64,000 bases of DNA from Saprospiraceae bacterium. Lineage in GTDB: Bacteria; Bacteroidota; Bacteroidia; Chitinophagales; Saprospiraceae. A model generated the notes under the pieces. The model searched no databases. It had not been told where the DNA came from and saw only the letters and a program-made list of their open reading frames with translations. Positions 62-16,653 of the stretch are shown here, in pieces. Within the stretch, counting starts at the first letter, position 1. Each line of letters opens with the position of its first letter. The stretch is taken from the NCBI GenBank assembly GCA_020629255.1, contig JAHDDR010000002.1, positions 1 through 64,000 of the forward strand, in the 5' to 3' direction. The position numbers and the translations under genes are program-made.

Positions 62-2116
62 TTGAAAAAAGTAATGAAAGAAAAAACAATATACGCTCTT
101 TTAATCGGAATTAATGATTATGCAATCAAACCTCTATACGGTTGTATCAATGATGTATTAGGCATGAAAAAATATCTGGATGAACTTCAAATAAGACAAG
201 ACGAAATTGGAAAGATAGAATATAAATTCCTTCTAGCGCCCCATACAGATTCTGCATCCAACAACATAAAAGAAATGAAAAAAGAAGGAATCGACGAAAA
301 TAATTATTCCTTGCCGACCAGAAATAATATTATTAATGCCTTCGATTTTTTTAATGACGCAACTCAAGAAGATATTTGTATATTATATTTTTCCGGACAT
401 GGTTCTTTTCAGGAAGTGGATGCTCCTTTTCAATATTTAGGAGGTACGGGGCAGTATCAAACTATTGTTGCTCATGATAGTAGGAAAGGGGAAGGGACAA
501 AAGATATCGTGGATAAAGAATTGTCCTACTTGATATGGAAAGTTAAAAAAGACAAACCCAATTTACATTTTGTAAGCATTATGGATTGTTGTTTTGCTGG
601 GACAAATACGATGGATGTAAATCAACCTATACAAAAATGGAGCAATGAAAATGAAAATAAAATTCATTATTCAAAATTTGTAGGTTTTCCTAATGATGGG
701 AATTCTAATGATTTTTATTTTATTAAAAAAAATGATGATGGAAAAATAATTAAAATAGATACGGACATCCCAAGACATATAGCACTGAGTGCTTCCCAAG
801 AAATGAAATCTTCGGAAGAAAGACAATTTCCTTCAGGAAGCCAAGGTTTGTTTACTTATGTTTTATTGGATGCCTTAAATAAAAATGTTGGAAATATTTC
901 TTATGATGATTTGGTAAAAAGGGTTGCTTTTAGATTAAAAAATAATTTTAATGCAAGCCATATCCCTAACCTTTGGAGTTCACCGAATGAAAGTAAGAAA
1001 ATAAATTTTTTAAATTTAGGAAAAATATCAGATAGCAAAGTTTATCCCATAGAAAAAAATAAAGAAAACGGAAATTGGATGTTGTTGGCAGGAGAAATTG
1101 ATTTGATAGTATCTTCAAGAGTGAATCCTACTACCATACAAGTAAAAGGGTTGGATGAAAACGATAATATCATATTTTCAGGCATAGCAAAAATAAAAGA
1201 AATTTATTCTACAGAATCCGTTTTGGAATGGGAACAGAATCCCCCAGAAGAAGAAGGGCTAAGATACAAAGGTGTTATTATAGAAATGAATGCTCCAAAA
1301 GTAGGAATGTCAATAAAAGTCGGATTGTCGAAGAAAGAAATTTTAATATTAAAAACACTATCTTTCGATATCCAATTTTACAAAATATCAGATGTTGATT
1401 CTGATTATACTATAAAGAAAGAAACCGGTTTATTCTTTTTGGTACAAGGAGGAAAGGAATTATTTAATGGAATATCAGAAATAGAAAACTTTAAAAAAGC
1501 ACTCAATGCCTTTGGTAAATGGCATGCCGTTCTGAATTTGAAACCTCATGAAAAAAATAATATTTTTAGAGAAAATATTTCGGTTATTACGAATATAATA
1601 GAAGGAGAAGAAATGGATCTTCAGACCATTCAAAAGGGGACATACCCGATAAGCCGTAATTTAGAAAACCCCAAGCAGCTTCAATTGGGATATCAACCAT
1701 TAAAAAATAATCCCAATAAAAAGGAAAGACCTTTATTACAAATTAAAATGAAAAGCAAAGTAGATCAACAATACATAACTTCCATATTATTGATGTCAGA
1801 AAAGTATGATATCCGAAATTGTTTCGAAGCGAATCGAATCTTTGGTCAAGAAGAAACCTTGATAAAATACGATAGTAAAAAATATGGCCTTGTCCATTAT
1901 CTCCCCTTTGCTTTACCCGAAAATAAAGAAGGAAACCTCGAAATTTATTATCTTAAATTTTTCATCATGAAAAAAGATAATTTTTTCGAATTAGAACATT
2001 TGCAGCAAGAAGCAATAGACAATATGCTAGTGTCGACCATGAATATCGTAACAAGATCCAAAAGAAAGAAAGCCGATTGGATGACTTTTACCATCAAAAT
2101 CGAAGTTTCCCGTTGA
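62..2116 (+). CDS. Caspase-like (peptidase C14/metacaspase-type) protease with C-terminal beta-rich extension
   Basis: N-terminal ALLIGINDY...L.GC.NDV.GM motif; catalytic His in ILYFSGHG (codon 113, nt 398-400); catalytic Cys in VSIMDCCFAG (nt 587-592). TTG at 62 or ATG at 74 could be the start. Confidence 0.9.
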   Translation: MKKVMKEKTIYALLIGINDYAIKPLYGCINDVLGMKKYLDELQIRQDEIGKIEYKFLLAPHTDSASNNIKEMKKEGIDENNYSLPTRNNIINAFDFFNDATQEDICILYFSGHGSFQEVDAPFQYLGGTGQYQTIVAHDSRKGEGTKDIVDKELSYLIWKVKKDKPNLHFVSIMDCCFAGTNTMDVNQPIQKWSNENENKIHYSKFVGFPNDGNSNDFYFIKKNDDGKIIKIDTDIPRHIALSASQEMKSSEERQFPSGSQGLFTYVLLDALNKNVGNISYDDLVKRVAFRLKNNFNASHIPNLWSSPNESKKINFLNLGKISDSKVYPIEKNKENGNWMLLAGEIDLIVSSRVNPTTIQVKGLDENDNIIFSGIAKIKEIYSTESVLEWEQNPPEEEGLRYKGVIIEMNAPKVGMSIKVGLSKKEILILKTLSFDIQFYKISDVDSDYTIKKETGLFFLVQGGKELFNGISEIENFKKALNAFGKWHAVLNLKPHEKNNIFRENISVITNIIEGEEMDLQTIQKGTYPISRNLENPKQLQLGYQPLKNNPNKKERPLLQIKMKSKVDQQYITSILLMSEKYDIRNCFEANRIFGQEETLIKYDSKKYGLVHYLPFALPENKEGNLEIYYLKFFIMKKDNFFELEHLQQEAIDNMLVSTMNIVTRSKRKKADWMTFTIKIEVSR

Positions 2117-2175
2117 AAGAATAGTAGAATTGGAATAATTTTTTAATTTCACTTTAAAATTGCACTAAAAAACCA

Positions 2176-3951
2176 ATGGGAGATGATGAATTTGGAATAG
2201 AAGAAAAACAAGGGAATTGTTACCTTTTCATGGTAGCCATAAATGATTATTCTCAGTTTCAGCCCAAGCATGGGCAAACAAAACCTATGCCCTTATACAA
2301 TGCTGTAGGGAGTAGTATACATATCCTATACGAGCTAACTAAATATTACACCTATCAACCTCCCCATCATTTTCCTGAATTTACTGAAATAGATATTCCG
2401 GATGTAAGGAAGTATCTTGCTGAAAAATATATACATACAGACATCGATCCGACTCGTTTTGATGATCCCGCCTATAAAAATGAAATCCAACCAAAATTAC
2501 AGACCTATACTTTGTTCGATGAACAAGCAACAGTAGCTAATTTTGAACAACACTTGGATTTTTTATTCGGAATAAATGGGAAACCCTTTTTGGAAAAAGA
2601 AGATAGTTTGTTGCTTTATATCACCTGTCATGGACTTTTCAATCCTAACACTTCTGCCCTGAATTTGATGTTATACGATCAGAGTTATCTGGCCAGTCAA
2701 TTAATAGATATATTCGAACCCAAATTCATCAATGGAAAATTTAAGGAAAAAATAAAAGATGTATTGTTGGTAATGGATTGTTGTAATGCAAGAGGAATAT
2801 CATTAAGCCAAACAGGAATTGGTGATTCACACCTGACGCGAAGATTCATCGCCTCGTCCTCACATGATGGAAAAGCCATAGATAGGAGAGGGACGGAAAA
2901 AATCACGCCTTTTGCCCAATCTTTTTTATCTGCTTTAGGCCAGTATAATAATACGGATGATGAATCTTTATTCCAGAATATAAAAGAGAAATTAAAAGAT
3001 CTGGATATTTCTAATGAACAACAGACAGCTACCAATGGATATATTCCTTGCTCTTCTATAGGAGGAGATTTTTTTTCTTTGAATTTAAAAAATAATTTCT
3101 CTCCTCCTAAAAAGTTAAAAAAGCATCTAAAAGAATTAAATTATACGGTAGAAAAAAGTGAGGTAGAATTAAAAGAATCTGAAAATAAAAATATTGACAG
3201 GTTGTTGTTCTTTACTTGCTATGGTGATTCTTGGGGAACTCATAATTTTGTATATAAATTACTCTTGGATACATATAAGTTCGAACTAGAAGGTTTTTAT
3301 GAAGGGACAAGAATGAAGGGCAAATTCAAAAGAATTGTAATCCCCTTAGGAGATTATTCAGGAAGTATAGGAATAGTTCCATTGCCTTTTAATACTAAAA
3401 TCAGAGGGCAGTTACATTTTTCCAAAGAAGTAAGTGATGAAAAAGTATTCGAAAATATTTATGGGAAATTATTAGAACATAATGTAGTTCTTTTTTGTGA
3501 TTTTGATAAAAGTAGCCTAGAATATTATGAAAGACAAATAAAGGAAATCAAAACATTTATGGATGGTTTTTCAACTTTCGTCCATACTAAAGATAATACA
3601 TTAACAGATACCGTATTTGTATTATTTGTCAGATTTCAGGCCATTAAAACTCCTGTAGGTGGAATCGATTTGTTTGATGAAGATCATTTTTCGAATTTTA
3701 AGGAATTAGAATTGGGGGAAGGGAAATACAATTATTTATCTATTTCCCCAATTGGGGAAATAGAGAGAAGTGATTTGAGAGTTTGGGGGAGAAAAATTGG
3801 TTTCAGTGATACTTATGGCCAGGAATTGGGAGTGAATTCATTATTTACCAAATCACAAACACTGGAAAACACAGTCGGTATTTTGGTCGAAATATTAAAA
3901 TATGATGATGATGCTCAAATGGAATTAAACGATCTTGTTTTTGAAATTTAA
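2176..3951 (+). CDS. Caspase-like protease fused to a C-terminal degenerate P-loop/iSTAND-like region
   Basis: MVAINDY N-terminus; LLLYITCHG (His, nt 2629-2631) and LLVMDCCNARG (Cys, nt 2779-2784). The C-terminal half has RLLFFTCYGDSWGTHNFVYKLL and VVLFCDFDKS, which resemble degenerate Walker A/B. Confidence 0.8.
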   Translation: MGDDEFGIEEKQGNCYLFMVAINDYSQFQPKHGQTKPMPLYNAVGSSIHILYELTKYYTYQPPHHFPEFTEIDIPDVRKYLAEKYIHTDIDPTRFDDPAYKNEIQPKLQTYTLFDEQATVANFEQHLDFLFGINGKPFLEKEDSLLLYITCHGLFNPNTSALNLMLYDQSYLASQLIDIFEPKFINGKFKEKIKDVLLVMDCCNARGISLSQTGIGDSHLTRRFIASSSHDGKAIDRRGTEKITPFAQSFLSALGQYNNTDDESLFQNIKEKLKDLDISNEQQTATNGYIPCSSIGGDFFSLNLKNNFSPPKKLKKHLKELNYTVEKSEVELKESENKNIDRLLFFTCYGDSWGTHNFVYKLLLDTYKFELEGFYEGTRMKGKFKRIVIPLGDYSGSIGIVPLPFNTKIRGQLHFSKEVSDEKVFENIYGKLLEHNVVLFCDFDKSSLEYYERQIKEIKTFMDGFSTFVHTKDNTLTDTVFVLFVRFQAIKTPVGGIDLFDEDHFSNFKELELGEGKYNYLSISPIGEIERSDLRVWGRKIGFSDTYGQELGVNSLFTKSQTLENTVGILVEILKYDDDAQMELNDLVFEI

Positions 3952-3955
3952 TGTT

Positions 3956-5023
3956 ATGAATAAAAAATACAAACCCTATTATAAGGAAAATGGAAAATTA
4001 ATTTCCAAATTCAGGAAAAATGAAAATGATGACACCCTAGTACCCAAAGTAGGGAAGGCACCTTATGTCGCCTCCGATGAAATGGTGGAAATAGTCAGAT
4101 TAGCACAAATACTGAATCGACCCATTTTAATAAAAGGTGAACCGGGGTGTGGAAAAACCATGCTCGCAAAATCCATTGCCATGGAATGGTATGCCCAAGA
4201 ATCTGATGATGAAGAAAAACAAAAAGAAGCATGGAATACCTATAAAAATTATTTTTTCGAATGGCATATTAAATCGACTTCTAAGGTTTCTGATGGGATT
4301 TATGAAGTAGATCATGTAAAAAGATTATACGATGCCAACCGAGAAAACCGAAGCCTTAAACCCATAGATGAATATATCAACAAAGGACCTATGGCATTGG
4401 CGTTGGATAAATCCACTGAAGATAATCCAACCATTTTATTAATTGATGAAATTGATAAGGCAGACATAGATTTTCCTAACGACTTATTACTAGAGTTGGA
4501 TGAAAGCCGTTATGAAATTCCAACAGAAAATGATGAGGGTGAGGTTGTTCAGAAACCCGTTGAAGCGAAACATCCCCCATTGGTTGTTATTACCAGTAAT
4601 GATGAAAGGGAATTGCCCGCCGCTTTTTTAAGAAGGTGTTTGTTTCTATGGGTCGAGTTTCCAAAACCAGAAGTTTTAGGACAAATTATCCAGGCTCATA
4701 TGCCAAAATTTCATAAAGAGCATACAGACTTTGTAAAGAAAGCAATTTCTGTATTTAATAAAGTAAAGGAAAACATCAAAACACAAACCAATGAAGAAAA
4801 AAATATTTCTACGTCAGAATTAATACAATGGCTGCAATGCTTTGAATGGCTCAATGATTCTACAGACAAATTTAAAGGAAATACGGATAAATTAATTGAT
4901 CACATTTATGGTGAAAGTGGAGAACTGAGATATTATTCTACCTTATTTAAAACATATGTTTCTTATAAAAAACGCATTGAATTAAGTAAAATAAAAAAGG
5001 ATGAGGGAAAAAAATCATCCTAG
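3956..5023 (+). CDS. MoxR-type AAA+ ATPase
   Basis: Walker A GEPGCGKTMLAKSIA, Walker B ILLIDEIDKAD, sensor VVITSNDERELPAAFLRRC. The ATG at 3956 is preferred over the TTG at 3935 inside the upstream ORF. Confidence 0.9.
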   Translation: MNKKYKPYYKENGKLISKFRKNENDDTLVPKVGKAPYVASDEMVEIVRLAQILNRPILIKGEPGCGKTMLAKSIAMEWYAQESDDEEKQKEAWNTYKNYFFEWHIKSTSKVSDGIYEVDHVKRLYDANRENRSLKPIDEYINKGPMALALDKSTEDNPTILLIDEIDKADIDFPNDLLLELDESRYEIPTENDEGEVVQKPVEAKHPPLVVITSNDERELPAAFLRRCLFLWVEFPKPEVLGQIIQAHMPKFHKEHTDFVKKAISVFNKVKENIKTQTNEEKNISTSELIQWLQCFEWLNDSTDKFKGNTDKLIDHIYGESGELRYYSTLFKTYVSYKKRIELSKIKKDEGKKSS

Positions 5024-6197
5024 GCATATTATCTTTCCCCATTGGGTACAATGGATGAAGTCAAGAATGGGCTATGATGTCGATTTGGATACATACAAGT
5101 TATTTATCAAAGCTATTCTTGATGGCTCCATACCTACCCATAATTTTGATGCATTTGTCCGACATTGTAAATATATGTTTTTACAACAAAATAATCATGC
5201 TGGAAAATTTTCTTTTTTATTGGAAGATATGTTGGAAGAAGAATTCAATCAATTGATAAAATTGTTGGAAATAGAAAATGATGCACCCTTCAACAAAATG
5301 CAAAACGGAGAAAAAAAAGTTCCTTTGGTTGATTCCGGAAAATCAAATAAAAGAAAAAACAAGAATAAAGATTCTGAAAAAAGAAAGCAAGAAAAAGATG
5401 ATTTGAAATTCACAACAGAATTAATTGATGTCGAAACAGAAGAAATTGTTCCTAAATATATCGAGCTAAATCAGATACTTCCTTATATCGACGAAACCAT
5501 AGAAATTGAAGAAGAAAATTTTGTTTATTCGGATGAATATTTTCCGGTGTCCAGAAAACATATGGTGAAGAATTGGAGATATGTTCGGGAAAAAGAACAA
5601 TATGGTTATTCAGATTTAATTGACGTAAAAGCTACTGTAAAGGAAATTGCAAAAATTAATTTTTTTCTGAAACCCATCTTCCAAAAAGGAAAAAGAAATA
5701 AATCCCAATTACTAACAATTTTTGCAGATGTACGAGGAAGCATGTTGGCCTTTGAAAAATGGATAGAACGATTTGTGGAAACGGCTAAAGCAGGGGGTGG
5801 TTTGAAAGGCACAAAAGCCTATTATTTTCAAAATGTTCCTGATGAATATGTTTACGAAAAAATACATATTTCGGAACCAAGGAAATTCCAAGAAGTATTA
5901 GAACAAAAAAAGAATAAAAATTCGGTGGCGGTAGTGATTAGCGATGCGGGAGCAGTAAAAGGCAGGGCATCAGAAGACAAAATAAAATCAGTATTGCGAT
6001 TTTGGAATCAGTTGAATCAACATTATGCTTATGTGGTTTGGCTTAATCCTATGCCTATCCATCGATGGAAAAATACATCCTGTGCAATTATTGCAGAAAA
6101 CATAGAAAGAATGTATCCCTTGATGGACATCGAAATTACCTATTTGCAAAGCGTAATAAAATCATTAATCAATCGGAAAAATGTGGATCTTAGATGA
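5001..6197 (+). CDS. vWA-domain protein (CoxE/SAV_2336-like) partner of MoxR
   Basis: QLLTIFADVRGSM (MIDAS-like), VAVVISDAG, VVWLNPMPIHRW; starts inside the 3' end of the MoxR ORF (23-nt overlap). Confidence 0.8.
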   Translation: MREKNHPRHIIFPHWVQWMKSRMGYDVDLDTYKLFIKAILDGSIPTHNFDAFVRHCKYMFLQQNNHAGKFSFLLEDMLEEEFNQLIKLLEIENDAPFNKMQNGEKKVPLVDSGKSNKRKNKNKDSEKRKQEKDDLKFTTELIDVETEEIVPKYIELNQILPYIDETIEIEEENFVYSDEYFPVSRKHMVKNWRYVREKEQYGYSDLIDVKATVKEIAKINFFLKPIFQKGKRNKSQLLTIFADVRGSMLAFEKWIERFVETAKAGGGLKGTKAYYFQNVPDEYVYEKIHISEPRKFQEVLEQKKNKNSVAVVISDAGAVKGRASEDKIKSVLRFWNQLNQHYAYVVWLNPMPIHRWKNTSCAIIAENIERMYPLMDIEITYLQSVIKSLINRKNVDLR

Positions 6198-9100
6198 GTC
6201 GAAGTGATTTAAATATCAATTACTCGAATTTAGGTTTTGCCAATAAGAACCGTCTAAGAAAATTCATCAAAGAATTTACCCAAACTTATTTTGATGAATA
6301 TACAATAGGCCATTTAGTTATGGCCGCATATGCTTCTATCCCTACTTTTATTTATCCCGATTTGTTATACAAATTCCATGCAAATTTTGGAATGTATCAA
6401 TGGGGAGGCAAAAAATATAAAATTCATTTGGTAGCCATTTCAGATGTAATCCAATCCTCTTTTTTGAAAGATGTGGGTTATAATCTATTTGTGATGGACC
6501 CCGAAATAAAAAAAGTATTATCCGAATGGTTGTCGAATGAATTAAAAGCCGGAAACGAAAAAAAATTATATTCATTTGAAACCATTGCCCAGTTCGTAAA
6601 ATCTGATTTGAAATATCAAAGTGCAGACATTGAATTTTGGGGAGGTGATGCTTTTGTGCAAGCCCAAGAATTTGGAGCCAATAAAATCGTGGACACGAAT
6701 ACGGCCTTTAAAAAAATTGTTCGACAAATTCAATTAGCAGATGCTCCGATGGAACAATTGGTTGCATCGAATAAATTAAAAGAAATTCTTGCCCAAGAAA
6801 ATATTACGACCGATCTTTCTCAATTTTATTTGGATACGGAAACAGAAGAAAGTATCGAATTATTAATTACGGAAACCATACAGAAAAAGGCAAATGCTAG
6901 AGTGCCCAAAACTCTTGTAAAAGGAATTTTTATTGCAGTAGATGATCAAAATTTGGGATCTAATATTGCCGAACAGGTTCCAACTAAATTTGCTCCCTCA
7001 GGGTTTAACCCCTTAGGAAATAGCTTCAAGGCAAGGCAATTAATGAAAGCCATTGAAGGAGATGAAATTCTAAATCATAAAAATTATTTTGAGTTTAAAG
7101 AGTTTTTTAATAAGACTGCATCAGATAGGAAAATTTTACAAGAATTAGATGCATGGCAAGATTTAGAAGAGGACGACGTGGCGGTTTTTTATTTTTCAGG
7201 AAAAGTAGAACCCAATTCGTTAGAAAATAATACAGGAGAATTAATGGTGTTGTCTTTGCCTGAATTATCAATAAATATTCAACAAATTCCTGATGGAAAA
7301 ATATTATTATCTCAAGGTCTTGTAGAACAAAAAATATATGAAATCATAAAAAATAAGAAGATTCATATTGTTATGATTTATGATTTCGATTATAGTGATT
7401 ATAATACAGAACCAAGAATATTTAATGTAAATGAAAAATCATTAAGAAATGATTCGGAAATGGAAGGTTCTGCTGTTGTTTTTTATTTGGGAACTCATAA
7501 TAATGACATTAAGCGGCAAGGAGGACTTACGGGTGTATTAGAGAAAATATTTTTACAAGGGGGCTTGTCGAAAACATATAAAGATCTTGGATTCGAAATT
7601 AAAAATGAAATTAATAAATCCAATAAAGGAACAAATAATATAGCGTTAGAGCCCATTCTCGCATTTCCGAAAAATACAGAACATTTTCGTTTTCTAAACA
7701 ATAAAACCAGCCAGTTCGATCATTTAGAATTATTTTTTAATGAAAAAAGAAAAGGTTGGTATTTGAATGCGGGATCGAATTTAGGACTTAATCCTTCCCT
7801 GGGTTTTATGCACACCTTAATCGAAGTGGAATTGCCGGAAGGAAACCAGCTGATTCCTTTAAAACGAATTGGAACCAAAAATTCTTTTTTTTCCGATTTT
7901 AATTATGAAGGATCTGGAAAGAAATTCAAAGCAAAACTTATTCAAAACAGCTTGAATAAAGTTCGATTTTATTTAGATAAATCCTTAGGAAGAAAAGAAC
8001 GGAATGAATTGGAAGATGCACTTCGTGAAAATCAAATTCAACTGATAGAATTATCAAATAATAAATTTGAAACCCATTATATAATTGCTCAAAATGAAGA
8101 ATTTGGATATTTTGCTTATGATCCTTTACTAGGAGAAAGTACGCCGATGGTTCATCTGGAAAATAATTTTTCCCAATTCTTGATTTATTTGGAATACCTC
8201 GCCCAATGGGAAGGCTTGATTCGATATTCCAACCTCAATTCAAAATATAATTATGCTGAAATTTCATATTCTCTTCAATTAACTTTAGATACTGAGTATG
8301 AATTTTATAATCCGGAATATTTCAACATTACCATACAGAATTATTATGATGAAGAATTTATTATTACAATAGAGGTAAGGTCGAAAAATAGAAATGGCGA
8401 ATATGTTTCCGAAACGATAACCCATCGGCAAAAAGGATTTACATTGCCAGAGTTGGATGTGATTCTACATACATCATACCAAGATTTACATTTAACGCCA
8501 TTTTTGTTGGATAATAATATGGCGATCCAAATGTTGCAAGCCGTACCATCCGAAAATCAGCCCGTGCCAGAAAATGATTTTTCGTATGATTTATATCCTT
8601 ATAGTTTTGATTTGTTCAATCAAAGAATGGGAGACAATAATTCTTTTTATTTAAAATTATTTCTGACCGACAAAGCCGTTAATTTCAAGCCCTTCGAGCA
8701 AGAAGGAGTTCAAGAAGGTGTAATTTCAAAAGGGTTGGATTTTTACAGGGGTGAAGAATTTAATTTCCAAAATGCCAATTGGATTTCTTTTACCTTGCCT
8801 ATCCAAATCAAATATGAATTAATGGATGAGTTGCCGGATGACGGAATAGATAGTATTCCTATAGAAAATAATCCTAATTTTACATCAAGCGATGTAAGTA
8901 AAGGAGTAGATGTTAATTTTGAGAAATTAGAGACTCAAGAAGAGTTTGAAAATAAATTAAGTGAAATTTATGGGTCTCTTGAACATTTCGAACTAAAGAA
9001 TGCGTCTTCTCATATGAGAACATTGTTATTGTCTCTAAATTATTCTGATGAAAATGAAATTTGGAAAACATATAATAATCTTGATCGGGAAATCAGTATA

Positions 9101-9502
9101 ATTGATAATTTGCAAGAAGAGGGGAGGATGAACACAAAGGAATATATGAAAGCTTTTTTTGATTTTGAGAAAGAAATAAAGAATCTATTGGATGAAGTGA
9201 AAAAAGAAGATGTTCTTGATTTAGAAAACGAAACAAAAGCAACTTATTTTGCCGAAATAAGAAAACTCCTTGCCGAAAATAAAATGAAGGAACTATTTAA
9301 TGAGTTAGAAAAAATAGCAAAGAGTAATAGTTCATATGGAAACCAACTCATTTTATTACAGTCCCGATACAATAGCCTTCAAAAAAGTATTTTGAATTAT
9401 ACCATTTCTACTGAGCAATCTAATATTTCTATGAATCAAATTAGAGCAGCTATTTTATCTCTTATCAACGATCTAGAAAACGACAAAGACATCCAATTTT
9501 AA
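6194..9502 (+). CDS. VMAP-like adaptor: novel N-terminal region, catalytically dead caspase-like domain, C-terminal EAD11-like module(s)
   Basis: ATGA overlap with the vWA stop (6194-6197); VAVFYFSGKVE (His to Lys) and IHIVMIYDFDYSD (DCC to DFD); C-terminal LLAENKMKELFNELEKIAKSN...NQLILLQSRYNSLQK...ISTEQSNISMNQIRAAILSLINDL matches the EAD11 pattern. Confidence 0.7.
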   Translation: MSRSDLNINYSNLGFANKNRLRKFIKEFTQTYFDEYTIGHLVMAAYASIPTFIYPDLLYKFHANFGMYQWGGKKYKIHLVAISDVIQSSFLKDVGYNLFVMDPEIKKVLSEWLSNELKAGNEKKLYSFETIAQFVKSDLKYQSADIEFWGGDAFVQAQEFGANKIVDTNTAFKKIVRQIQLADAPMEQLVASNKLKEILAQENITTDLSQFYLDTETEESIELLITETIQKKANARVPKTLVKGIFIAVDDQNLGSNIAEQVPTKFAPSGFNPLGNSFKARQLMKAIEGDEILNHKNYFEFKEFFNKTASDRKILQELDAWQDLEEDDVAVFYFSGKVEPNSLENNTGELMVLSLPELSINIQQIPDGKILLSQGLVEQKIYEIIKNKKIHIVMIYDFDYSDYNTEPRIFNVNEKSLRNDSEMEGSAVVFYLGTHNNDIKRQGGLTGVLEKIFLQGGLSKTYKDLGFEIKNEINKSNKGTNNIALEPILAFPKNTEHFRFLNNKTSQFDHLELFFNEKRKGWYLNAGSNLGLNPSLGFMHTLIEVELPEGNQLIPLKRIGTKNSFFSDFNYEGSGKKFKAKLIQNSLNKVRFYLDKSLGRKERNELEDALRENQIQLIELSNNKFETHYIIAQNEEFGYFAYDPLLGESTPMVHLENNFSQFLIYLEYLAQWEGLIRYSNLNSKYNYAEISYSLQLTLDTEYEFYNPEYFNITIQNYYDEEFIITIEVRSKNRNGEYVSETITHRQKGFTLPELDVILHTSYQDLHLTPFLLDNNMAIQMLQAVPSENQPVPENDFSYDLYPYSFDLFNQRMGDNNSFYLKLFLTDKAVNFKPFEQEGVQEGVISKGLDFYRGEEFNFQNANWISFTLPIQIKYELMDELPDDGIDSIPIENNPNFTSSDVSKGVDVNFEKLETQEEFENKLSEIYGSLEHFELKNASSHMRTLLLSLNYSDENEIWKTYNNLDREISIIDNLQEEGRMNTKEYMKAFFDFEKEIKNLLDEVKKEDVLDLENETKATYFAEIRKLLAENKMKELFNELEKIAKSNSSYGNQLILLQSRYNSLQKSILNYTISTEQSNISMNQIRAAILSLINDLENDKDIQF

Positions 9503-12500
9503 TAATCATAACCACCACCATAACCTCCTCTATATGTATTCACCCTGCGCCGCTTTTTGTAAAGGACCGCTTCCGTAGCATCCTTTTCAAATTTGTTCAT
9601 TTCTTTGGCATCATCAAAATCCATTTCTGTGTATTTTGATTTTGAATAACTGCTTTTATATTGGATAGGTTTTTCCTTGTCCAATTTATAAGCAATGTAC
9701 TGTATGCCCCATTCTTCAGATTTATTTTCATTACCCGAATACCCATAACCATCATCTTTTTTCTTGCTTTTGAAAAAATAGATAATGTATTCATCTTCTT
9801 CATCTATTAAGACACTGTCTTTTAAAAATACGATACTATCAATAGAAGGATAAGTGGTATAATCATATAAATAAGCCTCTGCAATGGCTTGTTGGTTTTT
9901 GTAAGCTTTCGGAAATTTATCCAGTTGTTTTAATTTTTTTAATTGTCGATATAAATCCAAGCGGGTCTTTGGATTTTCCGCCAACTTCGTCATGATTCTT
10001 GGATCGACATAAGAATTGTGTTTGGCCAATTGTGCCAATAAAATAGTTTTTGTATAAGGGTTTTCTAAAGTTTTTATTTTATTGAACAATTCACTTACCG
10101 CCTCTTCCTTGTGGAAGGGTGCCAACAAAGAAATATATTCATCCAAAAGAGAAGGAGAAGAATTATAACTGCTCCCATAATATCGATCCGATTTTTTATT
10201 CAGCTCGCTGGCTTTTTTCCTTTTATATTCAATTTTCATTTCATTCAATAAAAGCCCTTTGTATTTTTTTAGGATTTTAGTTTTTAAATGACCTTTATCT
10301 TTTAAATGGGCTGCCAATTGGTACACCCAATTTTTATATTCAGGAATAGAAGAATAATCCATTAATTCAGGAAATAAAATATTGCCATATTTTACGGCGG
10401 TCGAATCCATTAATGGACGAAACGTTTCATAAATGTTTCTTTCTGTAGAAAGAGGAATATCTGTCTTTAATAAAGTCAAAATTGATTTGAAATTATTTTC
10501 ACTGGGATTTTTTGCTAAGGCATTGATGACCTCCAATTGTATTAAACTATTGTCTTCGGATTGGATATACTTATTTTTAAGATAAGGAAAAACACGAGGG
10601 TCTTCTATGTTTCCTAATTCTTCCAATAGTCCGATTTTTATTTTCATTTCTTTTTCTTCGAACTCGTAATTTTCGATGGTTTCGATTAAGGGTTGTACAT
10701 CTTTTTTATCAAAAACAATATATTCATACGCCTTTAATGTATTGGCGCGGGTAAGGCTATCGGAACTATGTATATTGTCGAAAAAAATACTCGATTTTTT
10801 ATGAAAAGGACTTCTTCCAATCAATGTATCTGCCAAAATGAAGGTTTGGAAAAAAGTATCTATAAAAGTAGAAAGAGGTTCGTCAGAATAATGATCGTAT
10901 TGTAATAAATACATCACACCATGATTTAAGACATAATAGTTGTGAATGGATTTAGTGCTATTTTTCCGACTTAATTCCATAGCATAAAAAGGCTGGCCTT
11001 TTTTAAGTGTCCCTTTTTCTTTTTTGCTAATGATGTGATCATCTTCCTCCCATTTTCTTTCAATTCTATTCCATATCGAATCTAGATGTTCTACTTCATA
11101 AAAACTATGATACTTATTGTATGAAATATGGATGACTTCCTTGTAAGGTGTTTTAAAACTAGCACTTTGGTATTTGGACGAAAGTGTATCTTTGCTTTGA
11201 CGCATACCGTAAAAATCAAAGTACGGAGGCGATTCTACAGAAGAAATAACTTCGAAAAATAAACTCGTATCAATTTGTAATTCATATTTTTCATCTTTAT
11301 GGAGATAAGGTTTGAACTGGAACGAATCGAAATATTTTTTACTGGAAATACTATCCACTCCCACGGTTCCCATCATATAATAACGAGGTCCTTTTTTTAT
11401 CGAAAATAAATCCATCCTATCCCCATCTTTAGTCGTAGAGGTCGAATAAGAATGAGGGAAAGGGAAATCATCTCTTTGTGCATAAGAATGTATGGATTGT
11501 GCAGAAGTGTCAATTTGGTCATACCATATTTTATGCAAATATTCAAGCTCGAATTTGTCACTTTCCAAATATCTATAATCGTGATAAACCAAAGCTTGTG
11601 CAAAATAAAAACCTCCATCTTTACCCATGCTTTGGATCATCAAAGGACTGCCTTCCGAAGCATAAAGATGGTTGCCGTCCATAATAGGACTACCTGGAAT
11701 TTCTATTTCGAAATCACCATAAAAAGGTTGAACGGTTTTTGAAACATTTTCTTCTTTTTTCAATTTTAGGCTATTAAAATATTTGCTTCCATATTGCAAA
11801 GCATAATCCTTTTTTCCTCCCAATTTGAAAACTATGATTTCCAAAGGGGTTTCAACAATTAAATATTTTTGATGTTCGCCACTCTTTGTTTTATTTTTAA
11901 TTTCTATTGCCGGATATCCTTGGAAATTAATTCTATTTTGTTGTTCTATTTTTCCAGGAATATTTTCATACAGCATATCCTCAATTTCATCCAATCCGAA
12001 TTTATCCTTGTTCAATTTAGAAAAAGTAGGGGTTCTGAAAGAAAGAAAGTATGCACCGTTCGTTATGTCAAGAGAAAGTCCGACTTGTAAACCGTTATAA
12101 CTGAACTCATATAACTGTTCAGGTAAGTCAACCGAATAAAAATTATCAGAAGAAAAATATGTTTGATGCGGTCTATTTAAGAAATTCGTTTCAAAATTAT
12201 CTTTAATGTTTATTCCTTTTGGAGTCAAGTCTCCTTCGATAGCCGTAACCGAATAACCCTCCTCTCTCAAATATTCTATCACGCCTTTTTTTCCCGGTAA
12301 ATGGGCGGCACCAATGCCAACAAAGACTGTTCCCTTCTGCATAACGCTATCCATAGCCTCTACAATATTCCTGTTTCGTTCATAGAGCATATATTCATTA
12401 TACAATTCGGGATAATAATCTTCATTCAAGGAATCAATCAAATCCAGATTTTTATCCCGGTAAGCATCTTCTGTTAATTCTACAATTCCTTTTTTCTGTA

Positions 12501-13113
12501 ATTTCTTTTTCAACCACGGAGAAAATTCCTTTTTATCGTCGTAAGCATTTAATGCCGCTTTTTTTGTAAGCTGATCCGCTTCTTCGATATCTTCTAGGGC
12601 AAGCACCGGTTTTTTCTGTTTGCTCCCTGCCTGAAAAATAAACATATCCAAATAGGTCTCTTCTTGGAAATTTTGTTGGGCATCGCTATTGCGGTATAAA
12701 ATGCCATTCACCAACTCGTTATTTTGTTTTAGGATATATTGGAAATTCTTCTCGTCGGGGAAATGAGGGGCAAAAGAAGAATAAAGTTCATTGTCCATAC
12801 CATACCCACCACCACTGACTTGATCCAACATCAGATCCATCCAATCTTCAGGATTGGTTTCCAATGCCACTTGATCCACTTCTTGCAAGGCCTGATAAAA
12901 TTCATCATTCAAATGATAGGCGATTTTATAACTCACATGCATTGTGCCATACAAATAGGAAGGTTTCTCCATGCCCTTGCCCTCTATTTTCCAGAACAGG
13001 CTTTGGTATTTTTGAACATTCTCCTCCTCTTGGGCTTGTAATGGAAAAAAGCCAGAGGCAAACAATAAGATAAAGAAATAGGATAAATAAGTACGATTGG
13101 ATAAGTATGCCAT
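9499..13113 (-). CDS. TraB/PrgY/GumN-family protein with signal peptide and long HEAT-like C-terminal extension
   Basis: Signal peptide MAYLSNRTYLSYFFILLFASGFFPLQAQ; LFWKIEGKGMEKPSYLYGTMHVSYK and GTVFVGIGAAHLPGKKGVIEYLREEGY are GumN hallmarks. Confidence 0.85.
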   Translation of the reverse strand: MAYLSNRTYLSYFFILLFASGFFPLQAQEEENVQKYQSLFWKIEGKGMEKPSYLYGTMHVSYKIAYHLNDEFYQALQEVDQVALETNPEDWMDLMLDQVSGGGYGMDNELYSSFAPHFPDEKNFQYILKQNNELVNGILYRNSDAQQNFQEETYLDMFIFQAGSKQKKPVLALEDIEEADQLTKKAALNAYDDKKEFSPWLKKKLQKKGIVELTEDAYRDKNLDLIDSLNEDYYPELYNEYMLYERNRNIVEAMDSVMQKGTVFVGIGAAHLPGKKGVIEYLREEGYSVTAIEGDLTPKGINIKDNFETNFLNRPHQTYFSSDNFYSVDLPEQLYEFSYNGLQVGLSLDITNGAYFLSFRTPTFSKLNKDKFGLDEIEDMLYENIPGKIEQQNRINFQGYPAIEIKNKTKSGEHQKYLIVETPLEIIVFKLGGKKDYALQYGSKYFNSLKLKKEENVSKTVQPFYGDFEIEIPGSPIMDGNHLYASEGSPLMIQSMGKDGGFYFAQALVYHDYRYLESDKFELEYLHKIWYDQIDTSAQSIHSYAQRDDFPFPHSYSTSTTKDGDRMDLFSIKKGPRYYMMGTVGVDSISSKKYFDSFQFKPYLHKDEKYELQIDTSLFFEVISSVESPPYFDFYGMRQSKDTLSSKYQSASFKTPYKEVIHISYNKYHSFYEVEHLDSIWNRIERKWEEDDHIISKKEKGTLKKGQPFYAMELSRKNSTKSIHNYYVLNHGVMYLLQYDHYSDEPLSTFIDTFFQTFILADTLIGRSPFHKKSSIFFDNIHSSDSLTRANTLKAYEYIVFDKKDVQPLIETIENYEFEEKEMKIKIGLLEELGNIEDPRVFPYLKNKYIQSEDNSLIQLEVINALAKNPSENNFKSILTLLKTDIPLSTERNIYETFRPLMDSTAVKYGNILFPELMDYSSIPEYKNWVYQLAAHLKDKGHLKTKILKKYKGLLLNEMKIEYKRKKASELNKKSDRYYGSSYNSSPSLLDEYISLLAPFHKEEAVSELFNKIKTLENPYTKTILLAQLAKHNSYVDPRIMTKLAENPKTRLDLYRQLKKLKQLDKFPKAYKNQQAIAEAYLYDYTTYPSIDSIVFLKDSVLIDEEDEYIIYFFKSKKKDDGYGYSGNENKSEEWGIQYIAYKLDKEKPIQYKSSYSKSKYTEMDFDDAKEMNKFEKDATEAVLYKKRRRVNTYRGGYGGGYDY

Positions 13114-13323
13114 TCTCTAATAATAATTTAAAATAATTGGGAGTTACCCTGATAATTTCAGGAAGGGCAAAATACAATTAATTCTTATTAGTCGCCTGTA
13201 TCCCCACATTAAATTACGAAAATTAATCTTGTCCTTTCAAAAGTGTTGTGGATTCTACATTTTTGATTAATTTTCCGATTCTTTTGGAATTGATCCTTGG
13301 CAGACTCAATAAAGCACAGATTC

Positions 13324-16300
13324 ATGAGCCAGATTTCGATGGATGTGCCGGTCATTGTACGGCAGGTAAAATTGGAAGGGAAACTGAATTATCAGATTCG
13401 CCCATTGTTCTTTTCTTACCCATCCGTAACCCATCGTCGTTATGAAAAAGCTGAATCCACATTCAAGAATGAACTTAAATTTTATTTCCAGAATTATGTC
13501 CTGAGCCGTCCCGCCTTACCGAATTACTTGTGGTTCCGTTTCCATCCCGATGTCCAATACCAAATCGAACATTTCGAATTCAATTTGGGCAAACAATACG
13601 TGAAAGGAAATTTCGCCTATGCGGTATTCAACATGCAAAATGATAAATATGCCTTTCTTCCCAATATGAATAATTTCATGTTCATGTTGAAAACCAATGA
13701 AAAAGGAAAATATGACATCAAAGAAGGAGTAGGGCAAGTCATAGAATATCTTCTAAAAACATATCGGAAGAATTTAGGTAACTCCCATTTGGAAATAGAG
13801 CCTTATACATCCAACAAAAGCGAATTCAAATCTTCCATAAAATGCAATGTCAAGGTAGACGAGCAACCCTATCCCTTCGAAAATGATTTTGCTTCGATGT
13901 TTTTTGCCGGTTTCGGACAACAATCGGATTTTAACGGGAGTGTTGAAATTTATAAGGTAGGACATGATTTAAATGATAAATTTCCAAGCGACTTGCTAAC
14001 CGCTTGGTATCGGGAAAAAGAAATTTCAAGAATTGGTGAAGCTCTGTTTTCCAAAGAGAATACACCCATCGTACTAGTAGGAAAAGAAGGAGTAGGGAGG
14101 AAAAGTATTCTTCACGAAGTGTTGTATCGTTACCTCAGAGAGAGGGAAGGAACAGAAGATGAACTTCTCAAGAAAGTATGGCACATCGACCCGACTCGGA
14201 TCATAGCTGGTATGAGTATAGTGGGGATGTGGCAGAAACGCTTCGAATCCATTTTGAAATACATTCAGACTCGAAGGAAGAATGTCAAGAAAACCAATGA
14301 TCGTTCATCCGATATTCTATTCTTTGATAATCCCGTCGCTTTACTAAGAATCGGAAAGTCGTCCCAAAACGACATGACACTCAGTGATGTCATGAAACCA
14401 TATTTGGAAAAAAGACTTTTGCAAACCATCATTGTCGCTACGCCAGAAGAATGGAAGGTCGTACAAGAAAAGGATAGAAGATTTTCCGACTTGTTCAGTG
14501 TAGTACGAATGGATGAACCCGATCAGGTGACGGCAGTAAAAATGGTGTTGCAACGTAGAAAGTTATTGGAAGTCGAATACAGTTGCAAAATTTCGGCTCA
14601 TGCCATCTATAAACTGTTTGCCATCCATCGAAACTATTTTAAGAGAAGAGCCTTGCCCGGTGGCGTGATGCAACTCCTCAACCAAATGGCAGTCAAATAC
14701 AAATTCCATTCCATTGATGTAAATGAAATAGAACAGGAATTCGAAGATTATAGCGGCTTGTCTCCTATCCTTACGGATGATACCATCACCTTTGCCGAAA
14801 ACGATGTGAGAAACGAATTGGCACTTCAGCTCGTAGGGCAATCCGATGCCGTTGATGCATTGGCCGATTCTATCCATTCCATCAAAGCGAAACTGGTTAA
14901 CCCGAATAAACCCAAGGCATCTTTTATGTTTATTGGTCCTACAGGAGTCGGGAAAACCCAAGCAGCGAAAGTATTGGCAGAATACATGCTAGGAGGCGAA
15001 CAACAACTCATGCGTTTCGATATGAACGAATATATCGACGCTTCTGCCATTACCCGGCTAATAGGCGATCAAAACAATCCGGAAGGACAATTAACGGGAA
15101 AAGTAAGGTACAATCCTTTTGGAATTGTCTTGTTGGATGAAATCGAAAAAGCACATTCCAAAGTACATGATTTATTATTACAAGTGTTGGATGATGGCCG
15201 CCTGACTGATAGTTTGGGAAGAACCGTTGACTTTTCGAATACCGTCATCATCATGACATCCAATATCGGAGCGGATCAAGTGTATTCCAGAGTGGGTTTC
15301 GAACCCAACCAAAGTGAAATTGATGCGGTATACCGCAAAGCAGTCGAAAACCGCTTCCGTCCGGAATTCATCAATCGAATTGATAAAATCGTCATTTTCC
15401 AACCCTTAAAGCAGAAGCATATTTTGGGCATCGCCCGATTGCAAATCAATGAGCTGCTCAAACGGGATGGTTTTGTAAGGAGAACGACCATACTTAATAT
15501 TTCTGAGGATGCCCTAGCATGGGTCTCTAGCCGTGGCTTCGATGAAAAAATGGGAGGACGTGCCCTGAAACGTCAAATAGAAAAAGACTTGACTGCCCTT
15601 TCTGCCGAACAACTTTTAGAAGCGGATAGCGATACACCGGTCATCATGGATATTTTCCTTAAAAATAATCGACTCTTACCTCGCATCACCCCCTTGGATT
15701 TTACACCCACTGGAGACAGTTCCTGGTTGCCTTCTTTACCCGAAGAGAAAAAAGGAAAGAAATTTTATGGCCATTTATTGAGAACCATAGAACGGGTGGA
15801 AAAAAGCATTCAACGGTACGAAGAAAAACAAAAAGGCAATGATGAAATCATTGTGATTGGTGCGCACAATGAAGATTTGGATTGGCAATACTATGATTTC
15901 AAAGATCGCTTGGTGAATGTCAAAGAGAAGGTCAAGGAAACCATGCTGGGTTTTAGGGATAGTTATTTCAAAGGAGGCCCGGCACTTCCCCTTCGCTTGA
16001 AAGGCGGTGGTTTGGGGAGTTATATCCAGAAAAGCCAAGCCTCCACGAAGGGCTATCGCCAATTATTGAAGGATAAATTATTCCAAAAACAAGCCCTGGC
16101 AGAACTCAACGAATTCTATCGGCTGGCATCGGATCAATTTGATAGTCTGAATACCGAGTTTTTGGACAATTATTTGGATGCCGCATTTTTGAGTTTGCAA
16201 TCCAAGGGCTTCCTGAAGGAACAATCGGATGAGGTAACCTTGGAGTACAGTTCTTGCATCGATGGCAAAGGCAAAAAAGAACTGGATTTCCTAATGGATC

Positions 16301-16653
16301 TGCACAAATCTTATTTTGATGATGCAGAAATCCAATACGAAGAATTTCGAAAGGCAAGAAAAATAGTAGCAGACTCCCATTCATTATATGAATTGATCAA
16401 AGGAGAGAGAGGCATACATTTGTTCTATCGAACACACCAAACACCCTTGCCCTTGCGGGTAGAAATAAAATGCACCGACTATCCTGAAGAAACATCCATC
16501 ATGCGAGTTTTGAGATTATATGATCTCAAAGCAACATTAACGGATTTGAGAACCGGCTTCTCCAATGATGTCAGCATCACACCCAAAGAATTCAAATTGA
16601 TATTATATGCTGGTTTGGATGAAAAAACCAGAAACGAAATTATGAGGGTATAA
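13324..16653 (+). CDS. ClpC/ClpA-like double AAA+ ATPase with unusual N-terminus and release-factor-like C-terminal domain
   Basis: D1 GKEGVGRKS and ILFFDN (degenerate); D2 GPTGVGKTQ, IVLLDEIEKAH, TSNIGADQVYSRVGF, RFRPEFINRIDKIVIF; C-terminus ELIKGERGIHLFYR...RLYDLKATLTDLRTGFS. ATG at 13324 preferred over TTG at 13297. Confidence 0.85.
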   Translation: MSQISMDVPVIVRQVKLEGKLNYQIRPLFFSYPSVTHRRYEKAESTFKNELKFYFQNYVLSRPALPNYLWFRFHPDVQYQIEHFEFNLGKQYVKGNFAYAVFNMQNDKYAFLPNMNNFMFMLKTNEKGKYDIKEGVGQVIEYLLKTYRKNLGNSHLEIEPYTSNKSEFKSSIKCNVKVDEQPYPFENDFASMFFAGFGQQSDFNGSVEIYKVGHDLNDKFPSDLLTAWYREKEISRIGEALFSKENTPIVLVGKEGVGRKSILHEVLYRYLREREGTEDELLKKVWHIDPTRIIAGMSIVGMWQKRFESILKYIQTRRKNVKKTNDRSSDILFFDNPVALLRIGKSSQNDMTLSDVMKPYLEKRLLQTIIVATPEEWKVVQEKDRRFSDLFSVVRMDEPDQVTAVKMVLQRRKLLEVEYSCKISAHAIYKLFAIHRNYFKRRALPGGVMQLLNQMAVKYKFHSIDVNEIEQEFEDYSGLSPILTDDTITFAENDVRNELALQLVGQSDAVDALADSIHSIKAKLVNPNKPKASFMFIGPTGVGKTQAAKVLAEYMLGGEQQLMRFDMNEYIDASAITRLIGDQNNPEGQLTGKVRYNPFGIVLLDEIEKAHSKVHDLLLQVLDDGRLTDSLGRTVDFSNTVIIMTSNIGADQVYSRVGFEPNQSEIDAVYRKAVENRFRPEFINRIDKIVIFQPLKQKHILGIARLQINELLKRDGFVRRTTILNISEDALAWVSSRGFDEKMGGRALKRQIEKDLTALSAEQLLEADSDTPVIMDIFLKNNRLLPRITPLDFTPTGDSSWLPSLPEEKKGKKFYGHLLRTIERVEKSIQRYEEKQKGNDEIIVIGAHNEDLDWQYYDFKDRLVNVKEKVKETMLGFRDSYFKGGPALPLRLKGGGLGSYIQKSQASTKGYRQLLKDKLFQKQALAELNEFYRLASDQFDSLNTEFLDNYLDAAFLSLQSKGFLKEQSDEVTLEYSSCIDGKGKKELDFLMDLHKSYFDDAEIQYEEFRKARKIVADSHSLYELIKGERGIHLFYRTHQTPLPLRVEIKCTDYPEETSIMRVLRLYDLKATLTDLRTGFSNDVSITPKEFKLILYAGLDEKTRNEIMRV

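What the first reader, a model, noticed from the sequence alone, without database searches (positions are those of the whole stretch)
62..9502. Five-gene caspase/MoxR/vWA/pseudo-caspase-EAD operon: candidate variant of the VMAP-type ternary conflict system
Seen: five co-directional genes, with overlapping starts/stops from gene 3 onward. They encode two caspases with intact His/Cys, a MoxR AAA+ ATPase, a vWA protein and a large EAD-bearing protein. Known: MoxR-vWA-VMAP systems with effector-associated domains and caspase-like effectors were described computationally as NTP-dependent conflict systems (Kaur, Burroughs, Iyer and Aravind). Inference: this locus is an anti-invader or programmed-death module. 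A MoxR/vWA switch and the 1102-aa adaptor would license the caspases. Carrying two active caspases plus an inactive one in a single operon is unusual.
Basis: partly seen in the sequence, partly recalled or inferred. Interest (0 to 1): 0.9.

Follow-up and report, generated by a model that had tools for sequence, protein, structure and literature searches.

The report
Caspase-armed iSTAND-type bacterial conflict operon
A five-gene bacterial operon that looks like a known but untested kind of cell-suicide or antiviral switch, carrying two intact caspase-like proteases plus a dead caspase copy on its regulatory arm.

Summary
In detail: five co-directional genes at 62-9502 encode two caspases with intact His/Cys, a MoxR ATPase, a CoxE-type vWA protein and a 1102-aa dead-caspase/EAD11 protein. 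The parent class (MoxR-vWA ternary conflict systems) is right, but the subsystem is not VMAP. Gene 2 is a caspase fused to a diverged inactive-STAND domain (profile comparison E 5e-6, rank 2 of 247; AAA+/STAND-like model). Gene 5 is not a VMAP-like third component. It is the detached vWA-linker effector arm: in Dyadobacter sp. CY261 the vWA, this linker, a dead CHAT and a dead caspase form one protein. The order iSTAND protein-MoxR-vWA-linker protein recurs in 19 of 21 related loci, including a Nostoc plasmid. Clan-CD protease domains on the iSTAND side keep the catalytic dyad (15 of 15); those on the vWA-linker side have all lost it (16 of 16 proteins). The host genome holds ten EAD11 places, including a second iSTAND-MoxR locus. 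Two caspases plus one dead copy is therefore common here. Best reading: a protease switch in which the iSTAND-linked caspase is the active arm and the dead caspase is a bait or regulator. New member of a known, experimentally untested kind.

The parts
62..2116 (+). Gene 1: stand-alone caspase (clan CD), intact H113 and C177, plus a C-terminal beta-rich region shared with other stand-alone caspases of such loci; 5' end uncertain (contig end)
   Evidence: C-terminal region hhalign 100% to a profile that includes it; 29% identity over 356 columns to the caspase of L009
2176..3951 (+). Gene 2: third component, caspase (intact H152, C203) fused to a diverged inactive-STAND domain
3112..3840 (+). 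iSTAND-like domain of gene 2 (aa 313-555), P-loop degenerate (GDSWGTH)
   Evidence: hhalign 85.9%, E 5.2e-6, rank 2 of 247; model of aa 301-591 pLDDT 68, pTM 0.71, matches AAA+/STAND folds. PF19995 itself gives no hit
3935..5023 (+). Gene 3: MoxR-clade AAA+ ATPase, Walker A GEPGCGKT, Walker B LLIDEID, RRC
   Evidence: 38% identity over 337 columns to the MoxR of L009
5001..6197 (+). Gene 4: CoxE-type vWA protein, DVRGSM (aa 243) and SDAG (aa 314) metal-site motifs
6194..9502 (+). Gene 5: vWA-linker domain, dead caspase, beta-rich region, EAD11
6194..6769 (+). N-terminal linker domain (aa 1-192), equated here with the published vWA-L
   Evidence: Profile A8 hits; fused directly after vWA in L078 (leave-one-out E 7.7e-38)
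6896..7789 (+). Dead caspase domain (aa 235-532), His to Lys337, Cys site DFDYS
   Evidence: hhalign 93.7%, E 1.9e-7, rank 1 against 218 other proteins
9251..9478 (+). EAD11 domain, C-terminal
   Evidence: PF19964

Best explanation
The operon is an iSTAND-type MoxR-vWA ternary conflict system of a Bacteroidota bacterium. Gene 2 (caspase-iSTAND) is the third component, genes 3 and 4 are the ATPase/co-chaperone switch, gene 5 is a detached vWA-linker arm carrying a dead caspase and an EAD11 adaptor, and gene 1 is an extra active caspase. Proposed mechanism (inferred): at rest the MoxR-vWA pair holds the linker arm and the caspase-iSTAND protein in an inactive complex. An invader ligand, for instance a factor that binds caspases and is caught by the dead caspase, or nucleic acid sensed by the iSTAND domain, changes the complex. 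MoxR ATP hydrolysis remodels it, freeing or clustering the intact caspase of gene 2, which acts alone or through gene 1. EAD11 recruits other EAD11-tagged proteins of the same genome. Shown here by sequence: the component assignment, gene-order conservation, the intact-versus-dead protease split and the EAD11 repertoire. Inferred: complex formation, direction of signalling, target and outcome (cell death or growth arrest).
For: Gene order: third component-MoxR-vWA-linker protein in 19 of 21 comparison loci (18 order-level loci, L061, Nostoc plasmid L042, Dyadobacter L078), L055 with two genes inserted; L059 is cut by its contig end and L045 is an orphan. Gene 2 C-terminus matches 18 relatives' third-component C-termini; six of those 18 carry a PF19995 match over cut-off. 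Fold model matches ORC/Cdc6 (Z 10.0), the plant ZAR1 resistosome (9.3) and CED-4 (9.2). L078 fuses vWA, linker, dead CHAT and dead caspase. Clan-CD dyad intact in 15 of 15 third components that have such a domain and in the stand-alone clan-CD proteins with readable columns (15 of 15), lost in 16 of 16 linker-arm proteins (Fisher p 3e-9 for third components against linker arms, or 5e-8 after dropping two near-identical loci; loci are related, so p is nominal). EAD11: ten places in the genome on FGS, Roc-COR, putAbiC-like and iSTAND proteins.
Against: PF19995 gives no hit on gene 2 even at E 10; its nearest relative L044 scores only 16.7% against the iSTAND profile. The fold model rests on an alignment that assumes the homology; Foldseek TM-scores are 0.3-0.4 and Z near 10 is middling. 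A two-sequence model was useless (pLDDT 33). The N-domain was equated with vWA-L by architecture, since the published alignment was not read. No functional data exist. The idea that each dead domain mimics its own locus's protease was tested and failed (3 of 16 versus 1.1 expected).
Confidence: 0.72

Rival explanations
1. VMAP-type ternary system variant: the 1102-aa gene 5 protein is the VMAP-like adaptor that licenses the caspases.
For: The gene order 'third component-MoxR-vWA' is the same as in VMAP systems; Kaur et al. report paired caspase domains on both arms and ~70% dead caspases in the vWA effector position for VMAP systems (sections and passages read).
Against: No VMAP family matched; MoxR has no Trp in its first 62 residues, so the VMAP-specific motifs are absent; gene 2, not gene 5, sits at the third-component position and matches iSTAND relatives.
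Confidence: 0.05
2. A new subclass in which the dead-caspase protein (gene 5) is itself a novel third component and gene 2 is a plain caspase.
For: Linker plus dead clan-CD domain recurs in 16 of 22 loci; PF19995 misses gene 2.
Against: The linker domain is fused to vWA in L078 and carries FGS, receiver, GUN4 or EAD1 instead of a protease in other loci, as expected of an interchangeable effector arm; gene 2 matches the iSTAND profile.
Confidence: 0.1
3. Same iSTAND system but opposite direction: the iSTAND protein senses, its caspase cleaves gene 5, and the freed gene 5 fragment (dead caspase plus EAD11) is the effector, acting as a dominant-negative or scaffold (Kaur et al. model).
For: Published model for VMAP/iSTAND systems; EAD11 on gene 5 could recruit EAD11 effectors.
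Against: All 16 linker-arm clan-CD proteins are dead, so no catalytic output is released; other linker arms carry ligand-binding folds such as FGS or LRR, which suits sensing. Dore et al. argue for the reverse direction in DGR systems (passages).
Confidence: 0.35
4. A housekeeping CoxD/CoxE-like MoxR-vWA chaperone pair that lies next to unrelated caspase genes by chance.
For: A separate MoxR-vWA pair without caspases exists elsewhere in G190 (L010); VWA_CoxE is the vWA family hit.
Against: Conserved arrangement with fusions, short overlaps and sparse distribution (2 of 296 phylum genomes for gene 5; 2 of 325 class genomes for the linker profile; both counts include the window genome).
Confidence: 0.03

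Closest known systems
iSTAND MoxR-vWA ternary systems (Kaur et al. 2020, PMC7159879; sections read; PMC8195603 of 2021; passages read)
   Same: MoxR, CoxE-type vWA, iSTAND third component with an N-terminal protease, vWA-linker with effector as a separate gene (reported for a minority of iSTAND systems), EADs, Bacteroidota
   Different: The iSTAND domain is too diverged for PF19995; EAD11 sits on the linker arm; the effector-position protease is a dead caspase
VMAP ternary systems (PMC7159879)
   Same: Ternary logic; caspase on both arms with the vWA-side copy often dead
   Different: No VMAP-C, no VMAP-type MoxR N-terminus; separate linker gene
Nostoc carneum plasmid system (L042) and Anabaena, Tolypothrix and Nostoc ATCC 53789 plasmid systems (L081, L082, L084)
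   Same: MoxR-vWA-linker order; in L084 an EAD (EAD1) is annotated on the linker protein as EAD11 is here
   Different: EAD8 or EAD1 instead of EAD11; receiver, FGS or GUN4 effectors, no dead caspase seen
Dyadobacter sp. CY261 locus L078
   Same: CHAT-iSTAND, MoxR (44% identity), vWA, linker, dead clan-CD domains
   Different: vWA, linker, dead CHAT and dead caspase are one 1539-aa protein; no EAD11 match in it

Membership tests
iSTAND MoxR-vWA ternary system | MoxR-clade AAA+ ATPase next to a vWA gene, without the VMAP-type N-terminal extension | tested here: met
   Walker A/B and RRC present, no Trp in first 62 aa
iSTAND MoxR-vWA ternary system | Third component holding an inactive STAND domain | tested here: met
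   By position and profile comparison to 18 relatives (E 5.2e-6, rank 2 of 247) and a P-loop NTPase-like model. The Pfam model PF19995 misses it; that model passes its cut-off in 5 of the 16 relatives whose genomes searched
iSTAND MoxR-vWA ternary system | Peptidase, TIR or EAD fused to the N-terminus of the iSTAND protein | tested here: met
   Caspase in gene 2 with intact dyad
iSTAND MoxR-vWA ternary system | vWA-linker (vWA-L) carrying the effector, fused or as the next gene | tested here: met
   Linker profile hits gene 5; fusion in L078. Identity with the published vWA-L alignment could not be checked
iSTAND MoxR-vWA ternary system | Four-helix N-terminal domain of the CoxE-type vWA protein | not tested
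   Only the vWA part was matched
iSTAND MoxR-vWA ternary system | Protection against an invader | not testable with these tools
   Needs an experiment
VMAP ternary system | VMAP-C domain in the third component | tested here: not met
   No VMAP family at E 0.1 in any of the five proteins
VMAP ternary system | MoxR N-terminal motifs WxhapG and PsWRxa | tested here: not met
   No Trp in the first 62 residues (motifs)
Beta-propeller and FtsH ternary systems | bpMoxR-type ATPase, propeller or FtsH component | tested here: not met
   bpMoxR 17.7 bits against cut-off 27; no propeller or FtsH family in genes 1, 2, 4 or 5
EACC1-caspase system | Caspase of the EACC1-associated subfamily | tested here: not met
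   27.0 and 30.2 bits against a cut-off of 140
EAD principle (adaptor shared by core component and effectors) | Several proteins with the same EAD in one genome, one on a core component | tested here: met
   Ten EAD11 places in G000, nine over cut-off, on gene 5, an EAD11-iSTAND protein, FGS, Roc-COR and putAbiC-like proteins

The most novel reading that the evidence does not exclude
In these Bacteroidota systems the vWA arm is the sensor and the iSTAND arm the executioner: a catalytically dead caspase or CHAT is kept as bait for invader proteins that inhibit or mimic caspases, and its engagement, relayed by MoxR-vWA, unleashes the intact protease on the iSTAND protein. It would be a bacterial guard-decoy circuit built from one protease fold, with EAD11 wiring it to a genome-wide set of EAD11 effectors and to a second iSTAND system.
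Probability: 0.3. Interest if true: 0.75.

Novelty: new member of a known kind. Interest (0 to 1): 0.47.

Why it matters
MoxR-vWA ternary systems were predicted by comparative genomics; I found no experiment on one in the papers seen (searches). This locus is compact, complete from gene 2 to gene 5, and has clear catalytic residues on one arm and a clear loss on the other, so it makes the open question of signalling direction (which arm senses, which executes) directly testable by point mutants. The intact-versus-dead split extends to iSTAND/CHAT systems a trend reported for VMAP systems. The EAD11 set in one genome offers a concrete interaction network to test, with parallels to animal caspase and pseudo-caspase (cFLIP) regulation.

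Tried and rejected
Rejected: VMAP filing. Rejected: gene 5 as a new third component, my own first idea, after the L078 fusion and the gene-2 iSTAND match. Rejected: each dead domain is a decoy copy of its own locus's protease; the best match lay in the own locus in 3 of 16 testable dead domains against 1.1 expected (19 dead domains examined, three without an own-locus active partner). Only L078's CHAT and the L046/L047 pair fit.

Led nowhere: gene 5 against genome contigs, plasmids and phages gave no relative. The gene-2 C-terminus alone found only the window genome and G669 in 396 genomes. The linker profile found only G000 and G190 in 325 class genomes, so no large out-of-sample set for the intact/dead split could be made; the cyanobacterial plasmid loci gave gene order but no dead caspase. 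One of the four cyanobacterial plasmid hits opened, Nostoc sp. UHCC 0926 (L083), has no annotated MoxR or vWA gene beside the linker protein. The first structure job (two sequences) had pLDDT 33. VIA-align lists STAND proteins, but ORC/Cdc6 scores within 1 Z of them, so the model supports an AAA+/STAND P-loop fold and cannot single out STAND. No structure was predicted for gene 5.

Counts and drops: 60 of 396 genomes matched alignment A1; by matched range 19 of these touch the linker part and the rest match only the caspase part. I fetched all linker-range places except the window's own and G661's borderline one (E 2.2e-4). The weak CHAT hit in L057_05 (E 2.1e-6, both residues lost) was left out of the 16. 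Among stand-alone clan-CD proteins, L044_04 (partial hit, catalytic columns not covered) was left out of the 15. Catalytic columns of linker proteins that fell outside the aligned range (L043, L049, L051, L052, L053, L054, L061, and the caspase part of L044) and those of gene 5 were read by eye (and the alignment). PF19995 tallies are lower bounds: the C214 hit seen was missed under a stricter limit. In the family sample EAD11 occurs in 20 of 21 iSTAND-positive and 40 of 99 iSTAND-negative genomes (Fisher p 4e-6); genome size was not controlled.
Full report
What is there. The window is the first 64 kb of a 78.7-kb contig (C247) of a draft genome in 271 contigs, so nothing left of position 1 is known. 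Five co-directional ORFs occupy 62-9502. Pfam assigns caspase domains to genes 1 and 2, an AAA+ domain to gene 3, a CoxE-like vWA (26.1 bits, cut-off 26.4) to gene 4 and EAD11 to the end of gene 5. The dyads of genes 1 and 2 are intact (H113/C177 and H152/C203). A convergent TraB-family gene (9499-13113, minus strand) closes the operon.

Gene 5. Its first 190 residues define a linker domain found, by an initial two-sequence profile, in 19 of 396 genomes of the order (60 matched in all; the others match only the caspase part). Residues 235-532 are a caspase fold by profile comparison (93.7%, E 1.9e-7, rank 1 against 218 other proteins), although Pfam sees nothing; the relative in L009/L061 does match PF00656 (1.1e-6). 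Both catalytic positions are lost. The region after it aligns over 311 columns with the C-terminal half of gene-1-type caspases, but weakly (10.9%), so derivation of the whole middle of gene 5 from such a caspase is only a suggestion.

Relatives and gene order. I fetched 18 loci from 17 order-level genomes (L043-L060), one from G190 (L061), a Nostoc plasmid (L042) and a Dyadobacter contig (L078). In 19 of these 21 the order is third component, MoxR, vWA, linker protein; L055 has two unrelated genes before the linker gene, L043 a gap of about 570 bp between MoxR and vWA. L059 ends before the third component and L045 lacks MoxR and vWA. In L078 vWA (4-401), linker (447-612), dead CHAT (718-891) and dead caspase (936-1239) are one protein. 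This places gene 5 as the arm that hangs on the vWA protein, matching the vWA-L described in PMC8195603 (passages read). The match by name is architectural; I could not read their alignment.

Gene 2. The third components of the relatives carry CHAT, caspase, trypsin, TIR or EAD N-termini and a shared C-terminal region; PF19995 (iSTAND) is over cut-off in L042, L043, L046, L047, L053 and in L070 from the window's own genome. A profile of 18 such regions, without the window's, finds the window's gene-2 C-terminus with E 5.2e-6 and rank 2 among 247; the one higher, L057_05, lies in such a system itself. The closest relative of gene 2, L044, matches poorly (16.7%). A model of residues 301-591 from 19 sequences has pLDDT 68 and pTM 0.71 and resembles AAA+ and STAND NTPases, among them ORC/Cdc6 (Z 10.0), ZAR1 (9.3) and CED-4 (9.2), with low Foldseek TM-scores. 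Because its alignment assumes the relationship, this is support, not proof.

Live and dead proteases. Across the 22 loci (window included), clan-CD domains on third components have both residues in 15 of 15. Stand-alone clan-CD proteins in these loci have both in 15 of 15 with readable columns: nine caspases of gene-1 type, two further caspases and four CHAT proteins. Linker-arm proteins that hold such a domain lack at least one residue in 16 of 16. Nine loci have all three kinds, counting gene-1-type caspases: window, L043, L046, L047, L049, L050, L054, L058, L061. Kaur et al. report the same tendency for VMAP systems (about 70% of effector-position caspases dead, section read; caspase on both arms, passage). 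A statement of it for iSTAND or CHAT systems did not appear in the passages I read.

EAD11. The genome has ten EAD11 places, nine over cut-off. Besides gene 5 they include an EAD11-iSTAND protein followed by MoxR at C214, an FGS protein, a Roc-COR protein, a putAbiC-like protein and a protein with EGF-like repeats. EAD11 also lies on linker proteins of L055 (two copies), L057 and L045. In the Nostoc ATCC 53789 plasmid the linker protein is annotated with EAD1 (its linker match is weak, E 1.7e-4). So an EAD on this arm is a recurring design. In a sample of 120 family genomes EAD11 goes with iSTAND (20 of 21 versus 40 of 99).

How it may work. Kaur et al. propose that the third component's protease, once triggered, releases effectors from the vWA protein. 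Dore et al. (PMC10907252) propose for DGR systems that the vWA-side protein senses and the third component's protease executes (passages). A 2026 BREX paper (PMC12839542) describes the vWA component as fused to peptidase effectors awaiting activation (passage). The complete loss of catalysis on the linker arm found here argues against that last view for these loci and leans towards the second model, but does not decide between release of a non-enzymatic effector and bait-type sensing.

Verdict. A real, conserved, well-formed member of the iSTAND kind of MoxR-vWA ternary systems. It is neither a VMAP variant nor a new class. Host group: T9SS-associated and SprB-repeat domains in the window and the Dyadobacter match fit Bacteroidota.

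Noticed in passing
G000:C214:9000-21376 (L070): A second iSTAND locus in the same genome: EAD11-iSTAND protein (396 aa) followed by MoxR (312 aa) and a 1606-aa protein with a glucosaminidase domain.
   Followed up: partly
window 3739-3764: A perfect 26-bp palindrome (tctatttccccaattggggaaataga) inside gene 2, in the coding sequence; significance unknown.
   Followed up: no
window 13297-16653: A 1118-aa ClpB-like AAA protein with a PADLOC DolB hit (8.6e-25) and PDC-M37B hit (1e-28); probably generic AAA similarity.
   Followed up: no
L057 9443-13774: A linker-arm protein whose C-terminus itself matches the iSTAND profile (95.2%) and which bears two EAD11 copies: both arms' modules in one protein.
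   Followed up: partly
L055 7379-19118: TIR-iSTAND, MoxR, vWA and a linker-EAD11-EAD11 protein next to a Ras/Roc GTPase protein whose N-terminus looks EAD11-like by eye.
   Followed up: partly
L061 15585-19436 and L078 15529-17625: A GDSL-type lipase domain is fused to the L061 caspase, and the gene after the L078 system looks SGNH-like by eye, recalling the alpha/beta-hydrolase that Kaur et al. report beside caspases in VMAP systems.
   Followed up: no
L048 4339-7443 and L060 9127-12222: Linker proteins ending in FGS (FGE-sulfatase) domains, the fold that DGRs diversify; presence of a DGR was not checked.
   Followed up: no
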